A stretch of 64,000 bases of DNA from Sulfolobus islandicus Y.N.15.51 (lineage in GTDB: Archaea > Thermoproteota > Thermoprotei_A > Sulfolobales > Sulfolobaceae). The stretch is taken from contig NC_012623.1 of the NCBI RefSeq assembly GCF_000022485.1, positions 496,001 to 560,000 of the forward strand. Reading direction: 5' to 3'. The translations under genes were made by a program, and so were the position numbers. Below, in pieces: positions 11,761 through 22,775 of this stretch (position 1 is its first letter; every line of letters begins with the position of its first letter). The notes beneath the pieces were generated by a model that searched no databases, had not been told where the DNA came from, and worked only from the letters and a program-made list of their open reading frames with translations.

Positions 11761-12034
11761 TAATAAGACTTCCTATTATGCTTACATCTACATCACAAGA
11801 GAATGGGACGATTCACGGTAGTATTTTTGAAAAGTCCTTAGACTAGAATTAAAATTAATGCAGAATCTAATAACTACTTTCTAACTAAGATGATAAGTGT
11901 TTACCTATGGCGTAACTTTTCCTTACTTTTAATTACTTCTAATTCCGCCATGGGGCACCCCTCCTAAGGGATCATAAACTGTCACCCTTAAATCATTGGG
12001 GCTAGTTGAGGGAAACGCCTATATAGGTTTATTA

Positions 12035-12061
12035 GTCGAGGAGAGTAATACTCTCCTCGAC
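12035..12061 (+). ncRNA. Hairpin in the IS110 left end (bridge-RNA candidate)
   Basis: A perfect 12-bp stem (GTCGAGGAGAGT paired with ACTCTCCTCGAC) closed by a 3-base AAT loop. It lies in the ~190-base non-coding left end before the transposase coding homology. IS110 recombinases use an RNA from this end that pairs with target and donor DNA, so the hairpin may be part of such an RNA. Whether it is transcribed cannot be seen. Confidence 0.4.
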
Positions 12062-12070
12062 TGGGGAAAC

Positions 12071-13496
12071 ATGGTCGAGAGGGAAACTGAAGCGAAGTCT
12101 TCGGGTAGTGGCGTGACAAACCCCTACCATCGGACTGAACATTGTGATAAAATTCACGCATATAGGTGTGATAAAGAGGTAGGGGTAATAGGGATAGATG
12201 TATCAAAGGACCATTTAATTACAAGTAGGGGGAGGGTGAGAAGATACGAGAACAAAAAGGAGGGTTATGAGGAAATCCTCAAGATGAAACCTTGCACAAT
12301 AGTCCTAGAGCCTACCGGAGTATATGCAATAAAGCCTTCACAATACTTCAAGGAGAGAGGGGTAAGAGTACTACAAGTCAGCCCAAACGTGTTATCAAGG
12401 GAAAAGGAGTTTAGGGGAAAGAAAACAGATTTTTACGACGCAGAAAAATTAGAAAACATGGTCGACAAGGCTAAGGAGTACGATTACAACCCCTTAAAGG
12501 AATTAGTAACACTCTACCTCTTCCTAAAGGACATAGAGACGAAATACAAGAACAGGCTAAAGAGAGCACTATTCCTAGTAAGCGATAACGATAAGGTAAG
12601 CAAGGACAGGTTGGAAAAAACTTGCGAAAGGAGATTTCACACAGGAAGAACTATACCAACTTGAATACACCCCCTTAGTACTTGAGGAAATCAAAATCCT
12701 GGCTAAAAACCTCCTAGAAACGCAAGAGAGGTTCGGTAGACCCAAAATCTAATTAGTAAAAATAATTTTTATTCATTATTAGTAGTTCGTAACGATTTAA
12801 TGTAATTAGTTAGATAATTATATGATAATTTTTATAAATTTCCAAGTACCATATTAGATTTTTTATATTTCCACACAATTAACTGAGGAATATTATTATA
12901 ATATTAGAAAATGATAAAGATGTATATGATAGAATCTGTTTTATTTACATTGATTATTTAATACATTATTCTTAATGCTCTTGATTATGAGTATAATAAA
13001 ATATATTCTTTTATTTATTAAGAAAAAATATGAGGTTTAATGTTGAATTTATATTTGTAATATGATTTTGGGTCTACCGAGGTTGAAGGAGGTTAGGAGG
13101 ATGATTGAGGGGCAAGTCCCTCAAGACCACGTCCTATTAACGATACCAGGTGTTGGGAGGCTTGCAGCTGGTATTATTATTGGTATTGTTGGTGATGTTA
13201 AGCGTTTTCCTAAGCCTGAGTCCTTTGTTGCTTATTGCGGTTTAGATCCCGTAGTGGAGAGGAGCGGGAAGGCTGTGGTAAGTAGGGGGATTTCCAAGAG
13301 GGGTCATAAGTACTTGCGTAGCTTGTTCTACTTTTTAGCAATGAGGAGTTATTCTAGGAACCCAACCTTATTGAAGTTTTATGAAACACACAAGGATAGG
13401 TTGAAGGGTAAGAAGTTGTATGTCGCTTTGGCTAGGAAGTTGGCAAGGGTTGTTTGGAGTGTTTGGTATAATAATAAGCCTTATGAGCCTAAATAA
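12071..13496 (+). pseudogene. IS110 transposase (DEDD), frameshifted and interrupted
   Basis: The N-terminal RuvC-like half shows GVIGIDVSKDHL (first Asp), VLEPTGVY (Glu) and KTDFYDAEKLE (Asp-Asp). The C-terminal Tnp20 half shows TIPGVGRLAAG and GLDPVVERSGKAVVSRGISKRGHKYLRS, which holds the candidate catalytic Ser. The frame shifts at an A6 run (12615-12620): with five A's it reads on as LEKLAKGDFTQEELYQLEYTP. It is also split by the insertion at 12734-13079. Joining 12733 to 13085 restores ...ETQERLKEVRRMIEG in frame. The start is uncertain: ATG 12071 is the nearest in-frame ATG before GIDVSKD. Confidence 0.82.
12734..13079. mobile_element. 346-bp MITE-like element with ISC1225-type ends
   Basis: The ends are perfect 16-base inverted repeats (CGGTAGACCCAAAATC and its complement), flanked by a 5-base target duplication AGGTT (12729-12733 and 13080-13084). 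The interior is very AT-rich and has no gene. The ends match those of the ISC1225-like element at 29380-30582. The right end also matches beyond the repeat (CATATTA then an A-rich stretch), so that transposase could mobilise it. Confidence 0.8.
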
Positions 13497-13849: not shown

Positions 13850-14335
13850 ATGTCAGAAAACTCAGAAGGTCCTTATTTTGAAGATTTTAAAATAGGGCAA
13901 AAGTTTAAGAGTAAGGTAGGTAGGACTATAACTGATGTAGATAATATCTGGTTTACCCTTCTAACGAATAATAGTAATCAAATACATTTCAATAAGGATT
14001 ACACTGAGAAATATTTCCCTGGAGAGCCTTTTAAGGGTAGATTGGTAGTAAACGGATTTTTAACCCTAGCCATAGTAGCAGGATTATTAGTAGAGCAAAC
14101 TAGTCAGAATGGTTTCATGCTAGGTATAGAGAACGTAAAGTTTTTACACCCAGTATTTTCTGGCGATACTATTTACGCTGATGCTGAGGTCATTGAGGTT
14201 AGGGAATCTAAGAGTAGACCCAGTTTTGGAATAGTCAAGATAAGGTCATATGGATACAACCAAAAAGGAGAGAAACTCATAGAATTCGATAGAGTTTTTA
14301 TGGTAAGGAAAAGAGGTGCAAAGTGGTTTAGCTAG
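13850..14335 (+). CDS. MaoC-like (R)-specific enoyl-CoA hydratase
   Basis: 161-aa hotdog-fold hydratase. The N-terminal YFEDFKIGQKFKSKVGRTIT and the hydratase-2 stretch LLTNNSNQIHFNKDY are seen. The usual catalytic Asp of the D-x4-H motif is replaced by Asn while the His is kept, a pattern I associate with mesaconyl-CoA or beta-methylmalyl-CoA hydratase relatives rather than classic PhaJ. It acts on a short-chain acyl-CoA in the cytoplasm; the exact substrate is unknown. Probably leaderless. Convergent with the pilin-like operon (8-base overlap at the stops). Confidence 0.8.
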   Translation: MSENSEGPYFEDFKIGQKFKSKVGRTITDVDNIWFTLLTNNSNQIHFNKDYTEKYFPGEPFKGRLVVNGFLTLAIVAGLLVEQTSQNGFMLGIENVKFLHPVFSGDTIYADAEVIEVRESKSRPSFGIVKIRSYGYNQKGEKLIEFDRVFMVRKRGAKWFS

Positions 14336-14831
14336 TGAACGCTGTCTCATTAGGGTAAACTTGGGCAAACACTGTAACATTATAACCATTAATTTGGAGG
14401 ACAACAGAAGAGTTCCATACGTAAGCTGGTAATGAGAAATTATAGATAAGGGGTTGTGGAAGGTGCTTGCCGTTGAGAGGTTGTGCTTGCCCACTAGCGA
14501 TTATAAATGGTATTACCCTAGAGGTGACATTATAAATCACACTACCCTTCATATAATAGACACCCGTTAGAGTATAGTTACCATTCCCCTTTAGTACAAT
14601 GAGAGTAGAATTAGCCCAAACTGAACTTGAGGAACTTTTTGGATAAGTAGAATTGAAAAATATTAGAATTCCACCACCATTTATCTGATTCTTTAGAACT
14701 TGAACATAGTCTAATTGTTTGGCTGAAGGTACAGAATAGTTATTAAGTATATAAAACAAGGGAACAAGTATCAATACTATTATTATTATAGCTATTATGA
14801 AACCGATATATTCTGATTGAGCCTTCCTCAT
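14328..14831 (-). CDS. Type IV pilin-like secreted protein (167 aa)
   Basis: The N-terminus MRKAQSEYIGFIIAIIIIVL has a short basic leader, a possible PibD/class III cleavage site (RKA|QS) and a long hydrophobic helix, as in archaeal pilins. The rest is a Ser/Thr/Asn-rich beta protein with several N-glycosylation sequons and is probably outside the membrane. Last gene of a four-gene operon, 9 bases after the previous stop. Not assigned to a named pilus system, since no secretion ATPase or platform gene lies nearby. Confidence 0.7.
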   Translation of the reverse strand: MRKAQSEYIGFIIAIIIIVLILVPLFYILNNYSVPSAKQLDYVQVLKNQINGGGILIFFNSTYPKSSSSSVWANSTLIVLKGNGNYTLTGVYYMKGSVIYNVTSRVIPFIIASGQAQPLNGKHLPQPLIYNFSLPAYVWNSSVVLQINGYNVTVFAQVYPNETAFTS

Positions 14832-14840
14832 GGTTAATCA

Positions 14841-16250
14841 CTACAATTGTTGCCAATATTCTGTTACGGCATAGTTAACCGTTATGTTCATTGGTTGATT
14901 AATTATAACATAGGATGGAATATTCGGGAATGTGTAAGTAAATGATGTTCTGTTAGAATATTGGAATATAACTGTTTGTGCACCATAGGTACTTGATCCA
15001 GTAAATATTCCAGTGGGGTCAAAACTATAGTTCCCTCCAATTATCCAATAAGGATTAGGATTATTGTAATTATACACTGTACCATTGAGGATTAAGCAAA
15101 CTTGACCATACTGTTTCTCATTATAATTTCCAATAATCTTAACTAGGTAGTAGTTATAATCATTTAGATAGTTCAAATAAACTGTTGGGTTTGTAGCTCC
15201 TGGTGGTACAAATATTAGAAAAGACTTTGCAACGTACGTCTTCCCGTTATATCCAGCGTTAGAATATGAATAATGACTTATTACACCTTGGGACTGTTGT
15301 GTAGTATCATTAGCTTGTAATGTTATGACTGTAATATTAACATACCCTGCTGGTACAGTAATTGTTTGCTCGTTTTGAATAGTATAACTGTTACCATTAA
15401 CAAAAATCGACACATAGATATTACTATCACCTTTAACTTGTAAGGTCAAGCCCACAGTACTGGTTATTTGGGTGTAGTTGCCTATTAACACTACGGGTTG
15501 ACCTCTTAAGGTAACTTGTATTCCTTGGCTAGAGGTTGAATTAACAGTAGCTAACCCTAAGACTATCCAATTATGAAATACACCAGTTATAATCTGTCCC
15601 TTAGAGTTCTGATAAAACACATACTGAGGCAGTCTAGTCACAAAAGTCCCAGTCTGGTTCGAGAACGCAATTGGAGTAGTAAAATTCTTATAGGTACCAT
15701 ATATGTTCGTAGTAACGTTAGTAGACACTGATGATGGCCCACTTGAGGTATATATTTGAGTCAAAATCTCTACTCCTCCTCTACTTGCGGTCGCAAAGGG
15801 ACCTATTGATGATCCAGATTGCAAAAAGAATATATTGCCTAACGATGTGACTATGATGATTGGTCTACCTTGAATATAACTAGGTAAACTAATAACTTGA
15901 CCTTTTGATATCACAAGAGGATATTTGATTGAAGTTAAGTTTAACCATATCCCGTTTGTATTGAGATATAGAATGCTCACAATCGTTAAATTCGAAGGGG
16001 GTACAAAGGTTCCATTAGAATATACCGCGTAAATTGAACTACCGTTATAGTATAAGGATGGATGACCAGTAGTTACTTGTGAAATTTGAAGGTTTTTTAG
16101 ATAGACGTAATTATTAACTATAGAGGTTTTTACAGTATTATTCTGAGAAATATTGTTTAAATAGTATAAGAATGGTATGAAGACTAAGAGAATAACAAAT
16201 ATGAGAATAATAATTGATATCACGTTAGATAGAGCCCTATTCTTAACCAT
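14841..16250 (-). CDS. Large pilin-like surface protein (469 aa)
   Basis: Starting at MVKNRALSNVISIIILIFV, the protein has a class III-like signal (NRA|LS) and one N-terminal membrane helix, then ~430 residues of Thr/Asn/Tyr-rich beta sequence with many sequons. I choose the ATG at 16250 over 16274 because it puts the signal right at the N-terminus and overlaps the upstream stop closely, as expected for coupled genes. Residues around GVFHNWIVLGLATVNS resemble ATFQNWTIVGYGNLNS in the next gene upstream, so the two share a domain. Likely an extracellular filament or adhesin component. Confidence 0.68.
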   Translation of the reverse strand: MVKNRALSNVISIIILIFVILLVFIPFLYYLNNISQNNTVKTSIVNNYVYLKNLQISQVTTGHPSLYYNGSSIYAVYSNGTFVPPSNLTIVSILYLNTNGIWLNLTSIKYPLVISKGQVISLPSYIQGRPIIIVTSLGNIFFLQSGSSIGPFATASRGGVEILTQIYTSSGPSSVSTNVTTNIYGTYKNFTTPIAFSNQTGTFVTRLPQYVFYQNSKGQIITGVFHNWIVLGLATVNSTSSQGIQVTLRGQPVVLIGNYTQITSTVGLTLQVKGDSNIYVSIFVNGNSYTIQNEQTITVPAGYVNITVITLQANDTTQQSQGVISHYSYSNAGYNGKTYVAKSFLIFVPPGATNPTVYLNYLNDYNYYLVKIIGNYNEKQYGQVCLILNGTVYNYNNPNPYWIIGGNYSFDPTGIFTGSSTYGAQTVIFQYSNRTSFTYTFPNIPSYVIINQPMNITVNYAVTEYWQQL

Positions 16251-17910
16251 TGTTCCCACCATTTGGTATGGCACCGTATTTCCATTCCTCGTAATTAATT
16301 ATTATAAGGGGGGAATTTATGTACATTATACCGTAATCCCCACTTTGACCTTTAGGATAGTATGCATAACCATTAGTATACGTTACATTATAGATAGTCA
16401 CATTCTGTGGACAAGATAAGAGACCAGTATAATTTGTACCAGTATTATTTCCAACTTTAACAATCGTGAAGTTACCACTTAACTCTTGTAAATAATCTAA
16501 AGTAATTTCCAATTCCGTTCCACTCTTGAAATATATCTTTTCTGGAACGTAGTTGTTAATGTTTCCGAGTGTAATAACTTGATTTGTTCCTAAAACTTGA
16601 ACCTGAAGTTCTTGTCCCGAAATACTTATATTAACTGGAGTAGAATTATAAGAAGCCCAAATACCTTGAGGAAAGTAGAAGTAATTTTCAGCAATTACTA
16701 AGTAGTATGTTTGATCTAGTTGGTAATTACCAATAATTTTGCCACTACCATTAACGAAGACTGTGTAGCTGTTGATTATATTTATCTCACTAGTGTTTGT
16801 TGATAAACCTGTGAATTGATAACAATTTATTTGACCACCTTGTATCGTTACTTTTCCATTCTGCATGAATATACCATTCTTAATTGGCATTACATTATAA
16901 GCACCTTGATAGTTGGTTGAGGTATAATCAAAGGTTATATTATAATACGAGGGAAATTGTATTATATGGTAACCATAAGTCAATTGCAATTGTAATCCAG
17001 TAGAATTTATATAGTATTGTTTATTATCTATTAATACTGGTATTGTATTGTTAAGTGAAGTTAAGGTAACTTGATTATTATTACTGGGATTTATAGTACT
17101 TCCTAATGGTAAATTACTAGTATTTATCACAACTGTAAATTTCTGTAACTGTGCCTTATATATCGCAGTTAAAACTAGAGGTCCGGTTACAGTAAAAGTG
17201 GTGGAAAGTTTAGAAGGCGAATTTAAATTCCCATATCCTACTATGGTCCAGTTCTGGAATGTAGCGGTCAAACCATAACCTTGTAAGAATATAGTAGAAC
17301 CGTTCTTATCACTAATCGAATACGTCCCAGGATTTAGATAATAGACTTGCGGGGTTAAGAGTGATGGATTCGCCCCTAAAATAACTTGAATGCTTACTGG
17401 AATTACCTTGCTTCCATTTATAACAAATGCAGTAACATAAACTGGAACCTTACCCGCAGGTCCCGATATAGTAACTGTAGTAACTGAAGTGTTAGGATTT
17501 AGAAAATAGAAATTAGCTTGAGAAGATACTATTAGGATGGGTTGATTAAATGCAGCACGTGGTAAGTAAATGTTCTGGTTTCCAGCTAGTAGTATTGAAT
17601 TTTTAAGAGCTGGAACCCATGTACTACCATTAAAATAGTAAATTTGTGTTATATTAAGTGGATACGGTATTGAGTTATATAAAAATTCGATATAAGGCAT
17701 TAAGGAGGAATTGTAATATATATTGGGATTTCCTCTAAATACCTGATTTTCTTCATTTTTCTGAAGTTGTTGATAACCAGTACCGGCAATCTGCCCTTGG
17801 CTCGAATATATTGGAGTTGAGTTAAATATCAGTAATGCTGGTATCAATACGGAAAGGAGAACTATGAGCATTATTATTAAGAATATTGCGGAAGATAATG
17901 CTTTCCTCAT
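16243..17910 (-). CDS. Large pilin-like surface protein (555 aa)
   Basis: N-terminus MRKALSSAIFLIIMLIVLLS carries a class III-like signal peptide (RKA|LS) and a membrane helix. The remaining ~520 residues are beta-rich, glycosylation-prone sequence with repeated modules, including ATFQNWTIVGYGNLNSPSKL. The start overlaps the previous gene's stop by 4 bases (ATGA type) and the end overlaps the next gene, so the four genes are one transcript. No enzymatic motif is seen. The function is probably structural or adhesive at the cell surface. Confidence 0.7.
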   Translation of the reverse strand: MRKALSSAIFLIIMLIVLLSVLIPALLIFNSTPIYSSQGQIAGTGYQQLQKNEENQVFRGNPNIYYNSSLMPYIEFLYNSIPYPLNITQIYYFNGSTWVPALKNSILLAGNQNIYLPRAAFNQPILIVSSQANFYFLNPNTSVTTVTISGPAGKVPVYVTAFVINGSKVIPVSIQVILGANPSLLTPQVYYLNPGTYSISDKNGSTIFLQGYGLTATFQNWTIVGYGNLNSPSKLSTTFTVTGPLVLTAIYKAQLQKFTVVINTSNLPLGSTINPSNNNQVTLTSLNNTIPVLIDNKQYYINSTGLQLQLTYGYHIIQFPSYYNITFDYTSTNYQGAYNVMPIKNGIFMQNGKVTIQGGQINCYQFTGLSTNTSEINIINSYTVFVNGSGKIIGNYQLDQTYYLVIAENYFYFPQGIWASYNSTPVNISISGQELQVQVLGTNQVITLGNINNYVPEKIYFKSGTELEITLDYLQELSGNFTIVKVGNNTGTNYTGLLSCPQNVTIYNVTYTNGYAYYPKGQSGDYGIMYINSPLIIINYEEWKYGAIPNGGNNG

Positions 17911-18470
17911 GTTGAAGGTACCCCCGTAAAGGTATATGCTATTCTAAACCAATAACCGTTTGAGTTATATAATACCCAAACTACTAAAATATAATTACTC
18001 CCGCTTACTCCGTTTACCATTACCGTAACCGGAGTATTAAAGGGCACTGAATATGCTGTTATTTGAGAACCGTAAGTTATTTTACCGCTTATATCGTATA
18101 TTGGTACACTTATTATAGTATTTTTAGCTAATTTACCATTTGATAAATAAACTGAAAATTGTGGAGGTGACTGAGGTGTTACTAACCCTACGTCTTGCTG
18201 TAAATATGAAGGTTCTGGAAAGACTATTAAAGTAACGTTTCCAGCTATTGCTGGATTATATACCTCAATTACTGTGCTTGCACTTGATGAACCAATTATT
18301 AATGGTCCAACTGATATTGTTGTTGACGAGGATATGGAACTGGCTTGTTGTTGAGCTAGGCTAAATATCTCATGAGGTATGAAATAGGAAGTAGTAAAAC
18401 CAAATAATACTAATCCTATTAGAACTACTGCAATAACTATAATAAACTCCTCTGTAACTTCTGAAGGCAT
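17907..18470 (-). CDS. Pilin-like protein heading the surface operon (187 aa)
   Basis: MPSEVTEEFIIVIAVVLIGLV: a short leader, a putative cleavage site (SE|VT) and a hydrophobic helix, then ~140 residues of beta-rich domain. First gene of the operon. The ATG is 28 nt from a palindromic TATA box, giving a leaderless message. The N-terminal Glu shortly after the cleavage point is like the Glu5 of type IV pilins. Confidence 0.7.
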   Translation of the reverse strand: MPSEVTEEFIIVIAVVLIGLVLFGFTTSYFIPHEIFSLAQQQASSISSSTTISVGPLIIGSSSASTVIEVYNPAIAGNVTLIVFPEPSYLQQDVGLVTPQSPPQFSVYLSNGKLAKNTIISVPIYDISGKITYGSQITAYSVPFNTPVTVMVNGVSGSNYILVVWVLYNSNGYWFRIAYTFTGVPST

Positions 18471-18493
18471 CTCTATTCTGTATTAAGAAAAAG

Positions 18494-18503
18494 TTATATA
18501 TAA
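18494..18503. promoter_or_regulatory. Bidirectional palindromic TATA box
   Basis: TTATATATAA is its own reverse complement. Its centre lies about 28 nt from the ATG at 18526 (plus) and about 28 nt from the ATG at 18470 (minus), the canonical archaeal spacing both ways. One TBP site could thus serve both surface-protein units. Confidence 0.65.
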
Positions 18504-18525
18504 ATCCTCGCTTAATATTCTATAT

Positions 18526-19887
18526 ATGCCTAGTGCAATTACGAATTTGTTGATAATAATCGTTACTGTTATAATAGCTCTCTCTGCGTTTGCAATATAC
18601 TCAGCATTCTTTTCAGTTCAAGGTCTTGCATTCTTACAAGAGGAGAATGTGATAGGTATTTCTAAAATTGTTCAAGTAGCAGTTTCACAAGTTTCGTTTA
18701 AAGGATTACCACCTAGTTATAACTACTTTAATGTTAGTTACTTAATATGGATTAACTCCCCTACTAAGTATGTGACTGTTATACCTTTCGTTGCTTCACC
18801 CAGGTTGAACCCATTTTATATTCTCCCTAGCAATAGCCAAAACGCTAGTATATTCTTTTCTATGACTAATGGGTATATCCCATTAAATACTAAATTTGCC
18901 TTCAATGGTAATGTCTATTTGCCTCAACAAACCCAGTTGATTGGTAAAATTAACGGCGTTTATGCTTATAATCTGACTTCAAATCGGAGTTATATATTAT
19001 CGGCTAAAGTCTCGAATGGCCAGATAATTATGTTATGGATATTGTACTATTATCAAGGTAAGTGGTATAGGTTAGATTACACTTACTTGAACCCATCAAA
19101 TGCCGGAATAGGGGTTTATGTATTATCTGGGAGTGGAAACTATGTGGGAAATTCTAAAAATACTAATTTTAAACCTCCGCATCAAGTAACAAGCCAGACT
19201 GGATTAGGCTTTGGACTATGGTTCAAGCTTATCTCTAATGCAACTACTAAGACTTATCTTCTTAACGTAGCTATTACACCTACTAATAATAAAGATTTCT
19301 CAATTTTAGTTTGGGTTATTGGGAATAAGTTGTACGTTGGGACCTACGATCTGTCTAGTAATGAATATATAGCCCAAACCTATCTGATAACGCTTTATCA
19401 AAACAATTGGTATTTCATTAACTTTAGCTTAGGAAGTCAGCTACAATCATCGCAAGAGGTTAGTTTTACAATTTATAATTTGAGTAGTCAAAAATGGCTC
19501 AACACTACCACATTAGGAACTACTACGCAATCTAATGGATACATATCAACAGTTAAGTTTGGCTCATCATTAAAAACTGTTGCAATATCTCAAGCTTATT
19601 TTGTAACCTTGAAAAATAATCAAGGTTTACCTAACTTCTATAACGTTTCGAGTACAATGTTCAAGAATGGTCCGCTATACAACAATACTTATAATTACAA
19701 TTGGACTATAGCAAAGTCTAATAATTTATATGCGATAGGTTATTGGTATTTTGTGAATCCAAGCTACCCGCCTCCTCCTACGATCCTTGGAATATTATGG
19801 TATTGGCCTAACGGAAATGGTAAAACTAACTATCCCCAAATATATTATATACCGGAACAAGGTTACAATACATACGTTTTAATATAA
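18526..19887 (+). CDS. Pilin-like protein with a LamG-like domain (453 aa)
   Basis: MPSAITNLLIIIVTVIIALS is a pilin-like N-terminus (SA|IT, then a helix), matching the divergent operon's proteins. From about residue 225 to 375 the pattern GLGFGLWFKLISN...FSILVWVIGNKLYVGTYD...NNWYFINFSLG...VSFTIYNLS looks like a LamG/concanavalin A-like sandwich, which often binds sugars. The protein would be anchored by its N-terminal helix and face outward. It could be an adhesin tip. The LamG call is by pattern only. Confidence 0.65.
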   Translation: MPSAITNLLIIIVTVIIALSAFAIYSAFFSVQGLAFLQEENVIGISKIVQVAVSQVSFKGLPPSYNYFNVSYLIWINSPTKYVTVIPFVASPRLNPFYILPSNSQNASIFFSMTNGYIPLNTKFAFNGNVYLPQQTQLIGKINGVYAYNLTSNRSYILSAKVSNGQIIMLWILYYYQGKWYRLDYTYLNPSNAGIGVYVLSGSGNYVGNSKNTNFKPPHQVTSQTGLGFGLWFKLISNATTKTYLLNVAITPTNNKDFSILVWVIGNKLYVGTYDLSSNEYIAQTYLITLYQNNWYFINFSLGSQLQSSQEVSFTIYNLSSQKWLNTTTLGTTTQSNGYISTVKFGSSLKTVAISQAYFVTLKNNQGLPNFYNVSSTMFKNGPLYNNTYNYNWTIAKSNNLYAIGYWYFVNPSYPPPPTILGILWYWPNGNGKTNYPQIYYIPEQGYNTYVLI

Positions 19888-19913: not shown

Positions 19914-20427
19914 TTATTTTGATAATTCTTCAAGTTCAATCTTTGAAGCCTTAGGTCCTAAAATTGCTACATCTAGAGTTACTATAAGAGCCATTATGAA
20001 TACCACTGTGTACATTGAAACTGGTCCGTTACTATATAACACTATTGGTAAGAGAGTTAACCAAATGTAGTTTCCTAATCTACTTAATGAGTACTGTACA
20101 CCATCTGCAAAAGCCCTTACTCTAGTTGGATATAGCTCAGCGCCGTATTGATGGAAAGCATTGGAAAATATATTTGATAAGAAACCAAATGTGAAGCCAG
20201 TTGCTACTGCCTCCAGAGGAGAGGAGGAGAATCCAAAAGCTAGTCCTACTAACCCCATTAATAACATTACAATACTTACCTGCCATTTTCTGTTAAACTT
20301 TTGACTATCTATGATAAATATTGATGCTAGAGAACTAATAAAGTATGAGGTATAGATTATCATCGTGTACTGTAGAGTATGTACTAATGTGAAACCTTTC
20401 GCAAATAGTACTGATGGGGCCAGTGAG
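19914..20427 (-). pseudogene. MFS transporter, C-terminal half (split by IS)
   Basis: The frame from LAPSVLFAKGFTLVHTLQYT through IIYTSYFISS to the end is the C-terminal third of a metabolite:H+ symporter-type MFS. It includes the conserved GAELYPTRVRAFADG stretch. The part before the ATG at 20363 is also open in frame up to about 20427, where IS sequence begins. The N-terminal half lies at 21944-22775. Confidence 0.85.
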
Positions 20428-20493
20428 GGGTCGGACTTTCATTGAGGTTTCATGAATTTGTATTCAATCTCTCGTCCTCATTCCTCCTGTCCA

Positions 20494-20553
20494 GCTCCCC
20501 ATGCCGTCTACGGGAGCGGTAGTTAAACCACTCCCTTCAAGGACATGGGGAGT
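20494..20553 (+). ncRNA. Nested hairpins in the TnpB element left end
   Basis: The outer stem is CTCCCCATG (20495-20503) with CATGGGGAG (20544-20552). Inside it GGGAGCGGT pairs with ACCACTCCC (one mismatch) around a 6-base loop. Such a structure fits a subterminal transposition hairpin or a structured RNA. No transcript is shown. Confidence 0.45.
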
Positions 20554-20662
20554 TTCATTGGGTGCCTTCCTCCCCCTCACATTGCTCATCGAGTTCATTG
20601 TGGCATCCTCCAATTAAATATTAGCACAAAAATTTATAAATTTTATTGCTTCTAACACTCTT

Positions 20663-20827
20663 ATGGAGCAAATAGTTTTCAGATCAACGGTCTCAAGTTA
20701 TGGCACAGATAAGTATGGGAATAAGAGATATGGTATAACTATACCTTCAAAACTAAGGGATAAGGGTGAGAAATTATACGGTAAGGAGGTGATCGTAATT
20801 GTTATCTTACCAGATGATGAGGAATAA
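20663..20827 (+). CDS. AbrB/MazE-like small protein upstream of tnpB (54 aa)
   Basis: The frame begins MEQIVFRSTVSSYGTDKYG and contains KRYGITIPSKLRDKGEKLYG followed by KEVIVIVIL. This is the beta-hairpin pattern of AbrB/SpoVT DNA-binding domains (compare KYQVTIPKEVREAL in VapB at 47896). It ends DDEE. It overlaps the start of tnpB by 29 bases in another frame, so the two are translationally coupled. It may repress the element or help TnpB. The function is inferred. Confidence 0.65.
   Translation: MEQIVFRSTVSSYGTDKYGNKRYGITIPSKLRDKGEKLYGKEVIVIVILPDDEE
20785..20794 (+). promoter_or_regulatory. Strong Shine-Dalgarno site for tnpB
   Basis: GGAGGTGATC closely matches the anti-SD at the 3' end of crenarchaeal 16S rRNA and ends about 5 nt before the TTG at 20799. 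It favours that TTG over the ATGs at 20814 and 20817. It lies inside the upstream AbrB-like gene. Confidence 0.7.
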
Positions 20828-21905
20828 ATTGATAGGGTCTAGGGAAGCACTAGATAACTTCCAATTCGTTACGATAAATGGTAGAGTCTTATTTAACGAG
20901 AAAGAGAGGGTTGTTAGAATTGCTAGGGCTTACTCACAAGTAGTTAAGAGTGCTATTAAACCATTGTTTGACGGGAAGAGTATTGATGAGTTAACCAAGG
21001 AGTTTTACAACGTTTTACCAAACTACATTTACCTCGAAACAGCTTTAAAGCAAGCTAAGACAATTGTTGATGGCTTGTTGGAGAGAGAAGAAGAGAAGGA
21101 TAAAATTTTGCACGCTAAGATAAGGAAATTCTGGTTTGCCAGTAGGGGGAATAAAAGTGATAAGGGCAATAGGAATGTGAAGTTCCACGTTTTTCAAGAC
21201 CACGTTGAAGTTAAAGTTAAAGACCCGTGGGGTAAGTGGGTTTATGGGAAAGCATATTTTGGAAAGGAGTACTTATCACTACTCCATGAGTTGGAAGAGT
21301 TGGCGAGTAATAAGGAGGAGGGTTACGGTGCTGTAATTTCTTTTGAAGAAAAGCCGATGATCCACCTCCAAATCCCACTCTGGTTGTACTTAAAGCACTT
21401 CTCTTCACCAAAACCTGTGGGTTACGGTTTGATTGCCGGTTTTGATTTAAATAGTGATAGGTTGAACGTTGTTGTGGTTAATGAGGAGGGTAAAGTTGTT
21501 ACTAAAAAGACGTGGTGGTATTCGGATGTTACTAGACCAGGCTTTCCTAAAGGGAAAGCTATGGCTTTGCGTTTGAATGCTCTATCACAAGCCCTTAATT
21601 TCCTATCAAGGATTGGTGTTGATTATGTAGTATTTGAGGACTTATTCCTTGTTAAGAAGAGGAAGTTTACGAGGAGCAAAAGCGGTAATAGGAAGATAAC
21701 GCGTTTTGCTAAGAAGCAATTATTAATCCACGGTGTTATTAAGGCGTTAAGGTTGGGTTTTAACGTTATTCTAGTTAATCCTAAGGGTACTACTAATTCA
21801 GAAGACCACGAGAAGGTGATGAGGGAGAAGGGTTTTGATAGGCATACAGCCTCAGCTTACTTAATAGCCTTAAAAGGATTAGGAATGTTAAATGATATCA
21901 AATGA
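20799..21905 (+). CDS. tnpB: TnpB-family RNA-guided nuclease-like protein without zinc ribbon
   Basis: 368 aa. RuvC-like motifs are in order: GLIAGFDLNSDRLNVVVV (first Asp, ~225-242), VDYVVFEDLFLVKKRK (Glu) and GFDRHTASAYLIA (last Asp). Between the second and third motifs the usual CxxC...CxxC zinc ribbon is absent; the region reads LVNPKGTTNSEDHEKV. This marks a distinct OrfB branch. TnpB proteins are RNA-guided DNA nucleases that help their IS persist; activity without the ribbon is unknown. Start chosen from the SD site. The frame is intact. Confidence 0.82.
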   Translation: MLSYQMMRNKLIGSREALDNFQFVTINGRVLFNEKERVVRIARAYSQVVKSAIKPLFDGKSIDELTKEFYNVLPNYIYLETALKQAKTIVDGLLEREEEKDKILHAKIRKFWFASRGNKSDKGNRNVKFHVFQDHVEVKVKDPWGKWVYGKAYFGKEYLSLLHELEELASNKEEGYGAVISFEEKPMIHLQIPLWLYLKHFSSPKPVGYGLIAGFDLNSDRLNVVVVNEEGKVVTKKTWWYSDVTRPGFPKGKAMALRLNALSQALNFLSRIGVDYVVFEDLFLVKKRKFTRSKSGNRKITRFAKKQLLIHGVIKALRLGFNVILVNPKGTTNSEDHEKVMREKGFDRHTASAYLIALKGLGMLNDIK

Positions 21906-21943
21906 CATAAAATTCACGGTTTATCGAAAACTGTTGTCAACGG

Positions 21944-22775
21944 CAAAACCGTAATATACGCCAGCTTGTAAGAATTCAAAAACCCATAGCATTATTGTCC
22001 TCTTTCTATACAGTGGCGAGAATAGTTCAGATATTGTAACCCTTTGTGAAGTTATAACTTGGACTTGTAATGGTTCTCCCAATTGCCCCTTTTCCTTAAT
22101 AGCTATTTCCTCCATCCTTCTAACTATTTTTTCAGCCTCATCCAATCTTCCCTTACTTTCTAACCATCTAGGAGATTCTGGAATTAGGAATCTAAATGGT
22201 ATTATTGTAAGTATACCTAAGCCTCCTATTATGAATAGCCATTGCCAACCGTATAGAATGTATTTATGAGGCAGAAGAAGATAAGCTAGAATTGCGACGA
22301 CTATAGGTGCAGTCCACGCTGCAGTATAACCTATTGCTAACGTTCTGCCTCTTACAGTCGACGGAAAGAACTCCGTTATTAAAACGTCTAAAACTAATAT
22401 TGCCTCTGGTCCAACTCCTACACCAGCTATAAATCTTAATATTCCAAAAGTTAGAATATTTGGAGAAAATGGTATCAACAGTAAGGTGATAGAGGTTATT
22501 GCCATGTTGATTATCAGTGCAGTCCTCCTACCTACTGAATCTCCTATATAGTTGAAAATTATCGCACCTACGAATGCTCCTAGAAAGAAGATTGCAACAG
22601 TATAGTAGATTCCAGTTGCCGATGATACTTTAAAAAACGATGCCACTTGTGATGCTACGAAGCCTCCAGTAAATAGATCGTAGAGCTCGAAGAACTCTCC
22701 CAGAGTTAAGAGGGCTAAGAGTCTCGTATGAAAAGAAGTCCAAGGTAGTCTTTCTATTCTCCCAGCGATACTCAT
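21944..22775 (-). pseudogene. MFS transporter, N-terminal half (split by IS)
   Basis: Codes for the first ~275 residues of a sugar/metabolite MFS: LLTLGEFFELYDLFTGGFVA, GDSVGRRTALIINMA (loop 2-3 motif), GVGVGPEAILVLDVLITEFF and the central charged loop. It ends VYYGFA and runs into IS sequence (VDNSFR-stop). Together with 19914-20427 it makes one ~450-aa transporter. A truncated membrane protein from this half is unlikely to work. Confidence 0.87.

What the first reader, a model, noticed from the sequence alone, without database searches (positions are those of the whole stretch)
14328..19887. Pilin-like surface cluster without a secretion ATPase
Five adjacent genes start with a short leader and a pilin-like helix. 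Three are very large for pilins (453-555 aa) and one has a LamG-like domain. Two share a module (FxNWxIxGxxxxNS). This fits no named Sulfolobus system (ups, aap, archaellum, bindosome) as I know them.
Basis: partly seen in the sequence, partly recalled or inferred. Interest (0 to 1): 0.7.

Follow-up and report, generated by a model that had tools for sequence, protein, structure and literature searches.

The report
Likely tip proteins of archaeal pili
Five neighbouring genes, kept together in almost all Sulfolobaceae and found nowhere else, encode unusual pilins (two very long, one carrying a sugar-binding-type domain) that probably form the sticky tip of the cells' adhesion pili; they appear to be the unexplained gene cluster that a rod-shaped virus (SIRV2) needs to enter the cell.

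Summary
The cluster is real and conserved. D-C-B-A form an operon (14328-18470, minus strand), with E divergent (18526-19887). All five genes are recognisable in 22 of 31 Sulfolobaceae genomes and four of them in four more; the rest carry variants or related pairs. Outside the family there were only two marginal hits in 198 genomes. A, B and C have canonical class III leaders. E is a D-like pilin fused to a LamG/concanavalin-like lectin fold; C is predicted to be a pilin helix plus CnaB-like stalk domains. No ATPase is nearby, but in Sulfolobales Aap pilins are exported in trans. Two literature links, made here by mapping, tie the cluster to Aap pili. (1) Primers of the hyper-archaellated S. 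acidocaldarius strain MW2106 show that its deletion removes the whole cluster; hyper-archaellation is the published effect of losing Aap. (2) By position the operon is sso3138-3141 of S. solfataricus, a locus needed, with aapE/aapF, for SIRV2 entry; SIRV2 binds pilus tips. Best reading: the modular minor-pilin (tip/adhesin) complex of the Aap pilus. Tip location is inferred, not shown. A membrane-bound receptor complex remains the main rival.

The parts
14328..14831 (-). Gene A (167 aa): small class III pilin-like protein, leader MRKA|QSEYIG, 9 N-glycosylation sequons
   Evidence: leader motif in 25/26 orthologues and sequon excess (9 vs 2.1 in shuffles); profile similar to the N-terminus of C, hhalign prob 97.6
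14841..16250 (-). Gene B (469 aa): large class III pilin-like protein (leader MVKNRA|LSNV), paralogue of C; probably SSO3139 in S. solfataricus
16243..17910 (-). Gene C (555 aa): large class III pilin-like protein (leader MRKA|LSSA), predicted pilin helix plus CnaB/Ig-like stalk domains; probably SSO3140
   Evidence: (3phs Z 8.7, rmsd 1.8 over 79 residues, model 154-254)
17907..18470 (-). Gene D (187 aa): pilin-like protein without class III leader (MPSEVTEEF...), one whole-length pilin unit
   Evidence: profile hits Saccharolobus pilin structures 6w8x and 8fjs, E=0.002-0.0026 over 114 columns; 0/28 orthologues with K/R before the helix
18526..19887 (+). Gene E (453 aa): modular pilin; residues 1-187 are a D-like pilin unit without class III leader, residues about 224-448 a LamG/concanavalin-type jelly roll
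   Evidence: D vs E hhalign prob 99.2, E=5.6e-20; structure; Pfam PF13385 in one orthologue
18494..18503 (.). Palindromic TATA-box-like element TTATATATAA, 22-23 bp from both start codons: probably one bidirectional, near-leaderless core promoter for D-C-B-A and E
   Evidence: sequence; TATATATAA conserved in L044, L046, L047, L049; function inferred

Best explanation
The five genes encode the modular minor-pilin set of the Aap (archaeal adhesive, twitching) pilus, most likely its distal tip/adhesin complex. A, B and C are made as prepilins, cut by PibD and inserted in trans by the AapE ATPase and AapF platform encoded elsewhere. D and E keep an uncut N-terminal helix and pair with them. C and B contribute long stalk-like beta domains and E a lectin-like domain that binds glycans on surfaces, other cells or the S-layer. 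SIRV2-type rod viruses use this complex, with the pilus, to dock. Shown here by computation: gene anatomy, conservation, leader types, the domain relations D=E(1-187), A~C~B, the lectin-type fold, and the mapping of the published deletion onto the cluster. Established by others: hyper-archaellation of that deletion strain, SIRV2 resistance of sso3139/3140 and aapE/F mutants, SIRV2 binding to pilus tips. Inferred: identity of A-D with sso3138-3141, export by AapE/F, tip location, glycan binding.
For: Conserved gene set in a family where AapF is present in 30/31 genomes. G002 carries the cluster although Aap is its only strong T4P ATPase, and G006, G018 and G001 have it with only Aap and Ups at the loci read. 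MW2106 primers (PMC11607397) map so that the deletion 1433740-1446702 in S. acidocaldarius DSM 639 removes all five genes; the strain is hyper-archaellated and its sheared filaments were archaella and threads; hyper-archaellation is the published result of losing the Aap core (PMC6396743). The operon sits where S. solfataricus sso3138-3141 must lie and is the only four-gene surface operon there; that locus and sso2386-2387 (AapF/E) are needed for SIRV2 entry (PMC4456609, PMC7217056), and SIRV2 binds tips of isolated filaments (PMC7911016). The D profile matches Aap-type pilin structures. E resembles modular lectin pilin PilC of S. sanguinis (7oa7, Z 7.9), a modelled tip subunit (PMC9934059). 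Pilins are exported in trans in this lineage. PibD-family peptidase present.
Against: MW2106 lost six further genes (an S9 peptidase, three unknowns and a related pilin pair), so its phenotype cannot be pinned on the five genes, and no Aap count is given in the text. S. islandicus REY15A is reported to have premature stops in the sso3139 and sso3140 homologues (PMC5454432) yet makes abundant Aap pili (PMC11178852), and C is frameshifted in the DSM 639 genome, so B and C are not needed for assembly. The sso number assignment is positional; the original paper was not held. No profile link of A-C to AapA/B was obtained, and hhalign of D against a shallow AapA/B alignment was weak. Tip location has not been seen by anyone. 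Structure models are of medium confidence (pLDDT 61-65).
Confidence: 0.55

Rival explanations
1. A separate, non-filamentous, membrane-anchored surface complex (bindosome-like in style) that serves as secondary receptor for rod viruses and as an adhesin or nutrient binder; its link to Aap is only that both are needed, one after the other, for virus entry.
For: Reviews of the SIRV2 work call the locus a presumed membrane-associated cell surface complex and possible secondary receptor (PMC4456609). Large beta-rich ectodomains, sequon excess in A, B and C and uncleaved D/E fit a membrane-held complex. B/C-defective strains still make pili.
Against: Three members carry class III leaders and D aligns with Aap-type pilins over 114 columns; the deletion that includes the cluster is hyper-archaellated like Aap loss. 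Sugar binding by the Bas type is not needed: S. acidocaldarius shows only Arl, Ups and Aap machines among strong hits and has the cluster.
Confidence: 0.25
2. A cell-proximal complex like ArlF/ArlG of the archaellum: uncleaved pilin-like D and E, with A-C, stay at the pilus base, bind or open the S-layer and so let Aap pili cross and anchor.
For: D and E N-termini lack basic residues and resemble ArlG/ArlF (MASEVISETIM...); how Aap crosses the S-layer is an open question (PMC11607397); a lectin-type module could bind S-layer glycans.
Against: Profile comparison of D with ArlG aligned only 24 N-terminal columns at 23.5% probability. B, C and E carry adhesin-like domains typical of distal subunits. 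Virus binding at isolated filament tips points outward.
Confidence: 0.12
3. An independent, so far unseen thin filament or fibril built from these five pilins with a borrowed ATPase/platform.
For: Complete multi-pilin set with conserved order and its own divergent promoter; related two-gene modules repeat in other loci.
Against: No small, abundant major pilin in the set; cryo-EM surveys of S. acidocaldarius report only archaella, Aap, threads and UV pili (PMC11607397).
Confidence: 0.05

Closest known systems
PilA/PilB/PilC minor pilin complex of Streptococcus sanguinis T4P (PMC9934059, PDB 7oa7/7oa8)
   Same: Small pilin plus large modular pilins; one (PilC; here E) has a C-terminal concanavalin/LamG-type lectin module grafted on a pilin unit; a set of minor pilins beside a separate major pilin; E model matches 7oa7 with Z 7.9, rmsd 3.3 over 121 residues
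   Different: No sequence homology detected; archaeal; two of five members lack the class III leader; C carries CnaB-like stalk domains; genes unlinked to the assembly machine
Aap (archaeal adhesive) pilus of Sulfolobales
   Same: Same organisms; D profile matches Aap-type pilin structures 6w8x/8fjs (E=0.002); related mutant phenotypes
   Different: Cluster not in the aap locus; proteins much larger than AapB; not seen in the helical reconstructions of the shaft
sso3138-sso3141, SIRV2 entry locus of S. solfataricus (Deng et al. 2014, read through PMC4456609, PMC5454432, PMC7217056)
   Same: By position and description the same four genes as A-D
   Different: Described so far only as membrane-associated surface proteins, not as pilins, without E and without structure
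saci_1676-saci_1686 deletion (strain MW2106, PMC11607397)
   Same: Deletion contains the S. acidocaldarius orthologues of all five genes
   Different: Used only to raise archaellum yield; genes not described in the main text
ArlF/ArlG of the archaellum
   Same: Uncleaved, pilin-like membrane proteins with beta domains; similar N-terminal look to D and E
   Different: Only the N-terminal 24 columns align (prob 23.5%); cluster occurs in genomes without a detected ArlI
Bindosome (Bas) of Sulfolobales
   Same: Multiple class III-signal surface proteins
   Different: Bas has its own ATPase/platform beside its pilins (L073); cluster present where no Bas machine was found

Membership tests
Type IV pilin superfamily (class III signal proteins) | Class III leader ([KR][AG] before a hydrophobic helix), proteins A, B and C | tested here: met
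   A 25/26, B 25/25, C 23/25 orthologues
Type IV pilin superfamily (class III signal proteins) | Class III leader ([KR][AG] before a hydrophobic helix), proteins D and E | tested here: not met
   D 0/28 and E 1/25 orthologues; they are pilin-like by profile and fold, not by leader
Type IV pilin superfamily (class III signal proteins) | N-terminal helix followed by beta-rich globular domain | tested here: met
   Models of E (helix 3-48, beta from 50) and C (helices 6-30, 32-55, beta from 63), medium confidence; D profile matches solved Saccharolobus pilins. A, B and D were not modelled
Type IV pilin superfamily (class III signal proteins) | Processing by prepilin peptidase | not testable with these tools
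   A peptidase A24 gene is present in the genome; cleavage itself needs an assay
Aap pilus system | Genes in the aapX-E-F locus | tested here: not met
   aapF/E lie at 2.46 Mb, the cluster at 0.51 Mb; but in S. islandicus the major Aap pilins are also unlinked to their machine (PMC11178852)
Aap pilus system | Co-occurrence with AapF/AapE | tested here: met
   AapF in 30/31 genomes; G002 has the cluster with Aap as its only strong T4P ATPase. Weak as a test because Aap is near universal
Aap pilus system | Subunits physically on the Aap filament | not testable with these tools
   Needs imaging or proteomics
Modular tip minor pilins (S. sanguinis PilC type) | Pilin unit plus lectin module | tested here: met
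   E: D-like pilin unit plus LamG/ConA-like jelly roll (Pfam PF13385 in one orthologue)
Modular tip minor pilins (S. sanguinis PilC type) | Located at the pilus tip | not testable with these tools
   Only indirect: SIRV2 binds tips (PMC7911016) and needs this locus (PMC4456609)
Bindosome (Bas) | Encoded with or confined to genomes with the Bas ATPase/platform | tested here: not met
   Cluster in S. acidocaldarius and G002, where no Bas machine was found among strong PF00437 hits and the loci read
Archaellum ArlF/ArlG | Homology over the soluble domain | tested here: inconclusive
   hhalign D vs ArlG: 24 columns, prob 23.5
Archaellum ArlF/ArlG | Location in the arl operon / dependence on ArlI-J | tested here: not met
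   arl locus at 2.59 Mb; cluster also in G006, G018, G001 and G002, where no ArlI-type ATPase was found

The most novel reading that the evidence does not exclude
The distal tip of the archaeal Aap pilus is a heteromeric complex of two classes of pilins, PibD-cleaved (A-C) and never-cleaved (D, E), carrying a lectin and adhesin stalks. It would be the first archaeal pilus tip to be defined, and the direct docking site of SIRV2-type viruses; the two published SIRV2-entry loci would then be one machine.
Probability: 0.35. Interest if true: 0.82.

Novelty: new variant of a known kind. Interest (0 to 1): 0.68.

Why it matters
The tip of any archaeal pilus is undescribed: the Aap cryo-EM papers resolved only the AapB shaft and speculate about AapA at the tip. 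How Sulfolobus pili grip surfaces and how rod-shaped viruses find them are open. This cluster gives five concrete, conserved candidates, unites a virus-entry locus (sso3138-3141) with a deletion strain (MW2106) that had not been connected in the papers read here, and predicts that minor pilins can be supplied in trans and partly uncleaved. Existing laboratory strains make it testable at once.

Tried and rejected
Pfam and NCBIfam scans of the five proteins gave nothing above cut-off; apparent hits (SoxE_N, Wzz, PsbN) are transmembrane-helix noise. PDB sequence search found nothing for C or E beyond one chance-level hit. D vs A profile: unrelated. D vs AapA/B and D vs ArlG by hhalign were weak, with only three sequences in each target. 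Co-occurrence with a single T4P machine as proof: Aap is near universal, so the only informative genome was G002. The idea that the shared B/C motif is a known Pfam repeat (InlB-B like) was not supported by Pfam. The original SIRV2 paper (PMC4136359) is not held, so sso3138-3141 was identified by position with anchors SSO3117/3118/3124. The search for related loci gave only six loci, which limited the structure alignments to seven sequences. In the C search, pilin-fold hits to Gram-positive sortase pilins reflect shared CnaB/Ig domains, not a sortase system.
Full report
WHAT IS THERE. The window holds five adjacent pilin-like genes. Four lie on the minus strand in the order D (17907-18470), C (16243-17910), B (14841-16250), A (14328-14831). 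D and C share an ATGA, C and B overlap by 8 bp and B and A are 9 bp apart, so they are almost certainly one operon. E (18526-19887) runs the other way from a 55-bp gap that holds a palindromic TATA-like element, TTATATATAA at 18494-18503, 22-23 bp from both starts; it is conserved in near relatives and is probably a shared core promoter (inference).

LEADERS. Class III leaders ([KR][AG] before the hydrophobic helix) occur in 25/26 A, 25/25 B and 23/25 C orthologues, but in 0/28 D and 1/25 E. D and E begin MPSEVTEEF... and MPSAITNLL..., with no basic residue, like the ArlG/ArlF proteins in the same genome (MASEVISETIM..., MGVSQVIAYVL...). A, B and C carry more N-glycosylation sequons than shuffled sequences (9 vs 2.1, 17 vs 9.4, 21 vs 9.9), as expected for outward-facing domains; D and E do not.

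RELATIONS AND FOLDS. B and C are paralogues (E=5e-15), and A resembles the N-terminal part of C (hhalign 97.6%). E residues 1-187 are a D-like unit (hhalign 99.2%, E=5.6e-20). The D profile matches solved Saccharolobus Aap-type pilins 6w8x and 8fjs (E=0.002 and 0.0026 over 114 columns). A medium-confidence model of E (pLDDT 61) shows a helix, a first beta domain, and a second domain (224-448) that aligns with LamG/concanavalin-type jelly rolls: acylase Z 10.4, neurexin LNS Z 8.7, and PilC, the lectin-bearing minor pilin of S. sanguinis (7oa7, Z 7.9, rmsd 3.3 over 121 residues). One E orthologue also hits Pfam Laminin_G_3 (E=4.5e-4). The model of C (pLDDT 65) has helices at 6-30 and 32-55 and a set of beta domains; residues 154-254, which contain the shared FxNW motif, match a CnaB-type domain of pilin GBS52 (Z 8.7, rmsd 1.8 over 79 residues). 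So B, C and E are modular pilins in the sense used for S. sanguinis PilB/PilC.

CONSERVATION. In 31 Sulfolobaceae genomes all five genes are recognisable in 22 and four of them in four more. The neighbours differ between genera, so the five genes are the unit. Two genomes (G015, G024) have a variant with a longer C and E and a secreted ~500-aa neighbour, and three (G003, G020, G021) have only related modules. A recurring two-gene relative pairs a D-type uncleaved protein (~175 aa) with a large class III protein (500-750 aa). In 198 other genomes of the class there were two marginal hits. This is a family-specific system.

WHICH MACHINE. No T4P ATPase lies in the window. The genome has archaellum, Aap, Ups and Bas machines elsewhere and one A24 prepilin peptidase. 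G002 has the cluster although its only strong PF00437 hit is the Aap ATPase, and G006, G018 and G001 have it with Aap and Ups only. AapF is found in 30 of 31 genomes. Supply in trans is normal here: in S. islandicus REY15A the Aap pilins lie 192 kb from their ATPase and platform (PMC11178852). Co-occurrence is therefore compatible with Aap and excludes Bas and the archaellum as required partners, but does not prove Aap.

TWO LITERATURE LINKS MADE BY MAPPING. (1) Gaines et al. 2024 (PMC11607397) built the hyper-archaellated S. acidocaldarius strain MW2106 by deleting saci_1676-saci_1686. Their primers map on G022 (2,225,959 bp, taken as DSM 639) at 1432665-1433738 and 1446703-1447706, so the deletion removes exactly eleven genes: the five cluster genes, the related 176/598-aa pair, an S9 peptidase and three unknowns. 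The sheared preparation contained archaella and threads; Aap structures came from other strains. Loss of the Aap core is known to give hyper-archaellation (PMC6396743). (2) SIRV2-resistant S. solfataricus mutants fall in sso2386-2387 (AapF/AapE) and sso3138-3141, a supposed membrane-associated surface complex (PMC4456609, PMC5454432, PMC7217056). In G014 (3,034,024 bp, taken as S. solfataricus), ORFs that look like the aldehyde dehydrogenase SSO3117, the dehydratase SSO3118 and the arabinonate dehydratase SSO3124 (numbers from PMC6182646; functions from memory) lie at 2909808, 2911330 and 2916940, and about ten genes later A, B, C and D (2929612-2933731) are the only four-gene surface operon. 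I therefore read A-D as SSO3138-3141 (inferred; the original paper is not held). SIRV2 binds the tips of isolated filaments (PMC7911016).

MECHANISM. [quoted passage not shown] B and C do not seem necessary for assembly: REY15A is reported to have premature stops in both homologues (PMC5454432) and yet makes Aap pili, DSM 639 has a one-base deletion in C, and Metallosphaera javensis retains only remnants of B and C. This favours adhesin or receptor roles for B and C over an essential priming role, and would fit repeated loss under virus pressure (inference; some cases may be assembly errors). The main rival is a membrane-held receptor complex; a base-located S-layer-binding complex is a lesser one.

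LIMITS. MW2106 lacks six other genes. The sso identity is positional. Models rest on seven sequences. No experiment places these proteins on a pilus.

Noticed in passing
L060:9156-10840 (S. acidocaldarius, G022:C1:1443155-1444839): Gene C is broken by a one-base deletion in a C-rich tract, against an intact copy in G023; true frameshift, phase variation or sequencing error not decided.
   Followed up: partly
window 19914-22775: An MFS transporter gene (448 aa in relatives) appears split into 149- and 284-aa pieces by a TnpB-type insertion (20799-21905); on the other side IS110-like transposase pieces lie at 11996-13496.
   Followed up: partly
L108, L109, L110, L111, L116, L118, L119, L120; L060:4540-6872: A recurring two-gene relative: an uncleaved D-type protein (~175 aa) next to a large class III pilin (about 600-750 aa). 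Same cleaved/uncleaved pairing as in the cluster.
   Followed up: partly
L045:6452-16231; L062:4638-12637; L063:7148-15123: Variant clusters with longer C/E-like pilins and a conserved secreted ~500-aa protein as neighbour; L062 and L045 replace A/B with different small class III proteins.
   Followed up: partly
L121:14420-15298; L109:7993-8925; L118:11093-12025: An unknown ~300-aa protein family (no Pfam hit in S. acidocaldarius) lies near the two-gene pilin module in different genera; possible regulator.
   Followed up: no
L053:10339-12430 (Metallosphaera javensis): B and C survive only as truncated remnants, while A, D and E are intact.
   Followed up: partly
L048 (Sulfolobales archaeon Acd1): D cannot be found between C and E; the gap is too short for it.
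   Followed up: no
G014:C1:2243428-2245276: AapF is split into two overlapping matches with stops in the S. solfataricus-like genome, in line with reports of an insertion in its aap operon.
   Followed up: no
L056 (Metallosphaera yellowstonensis), L057: Up to three partial or complete copies of the cluster in one genome, some broken.
   Followed up: no
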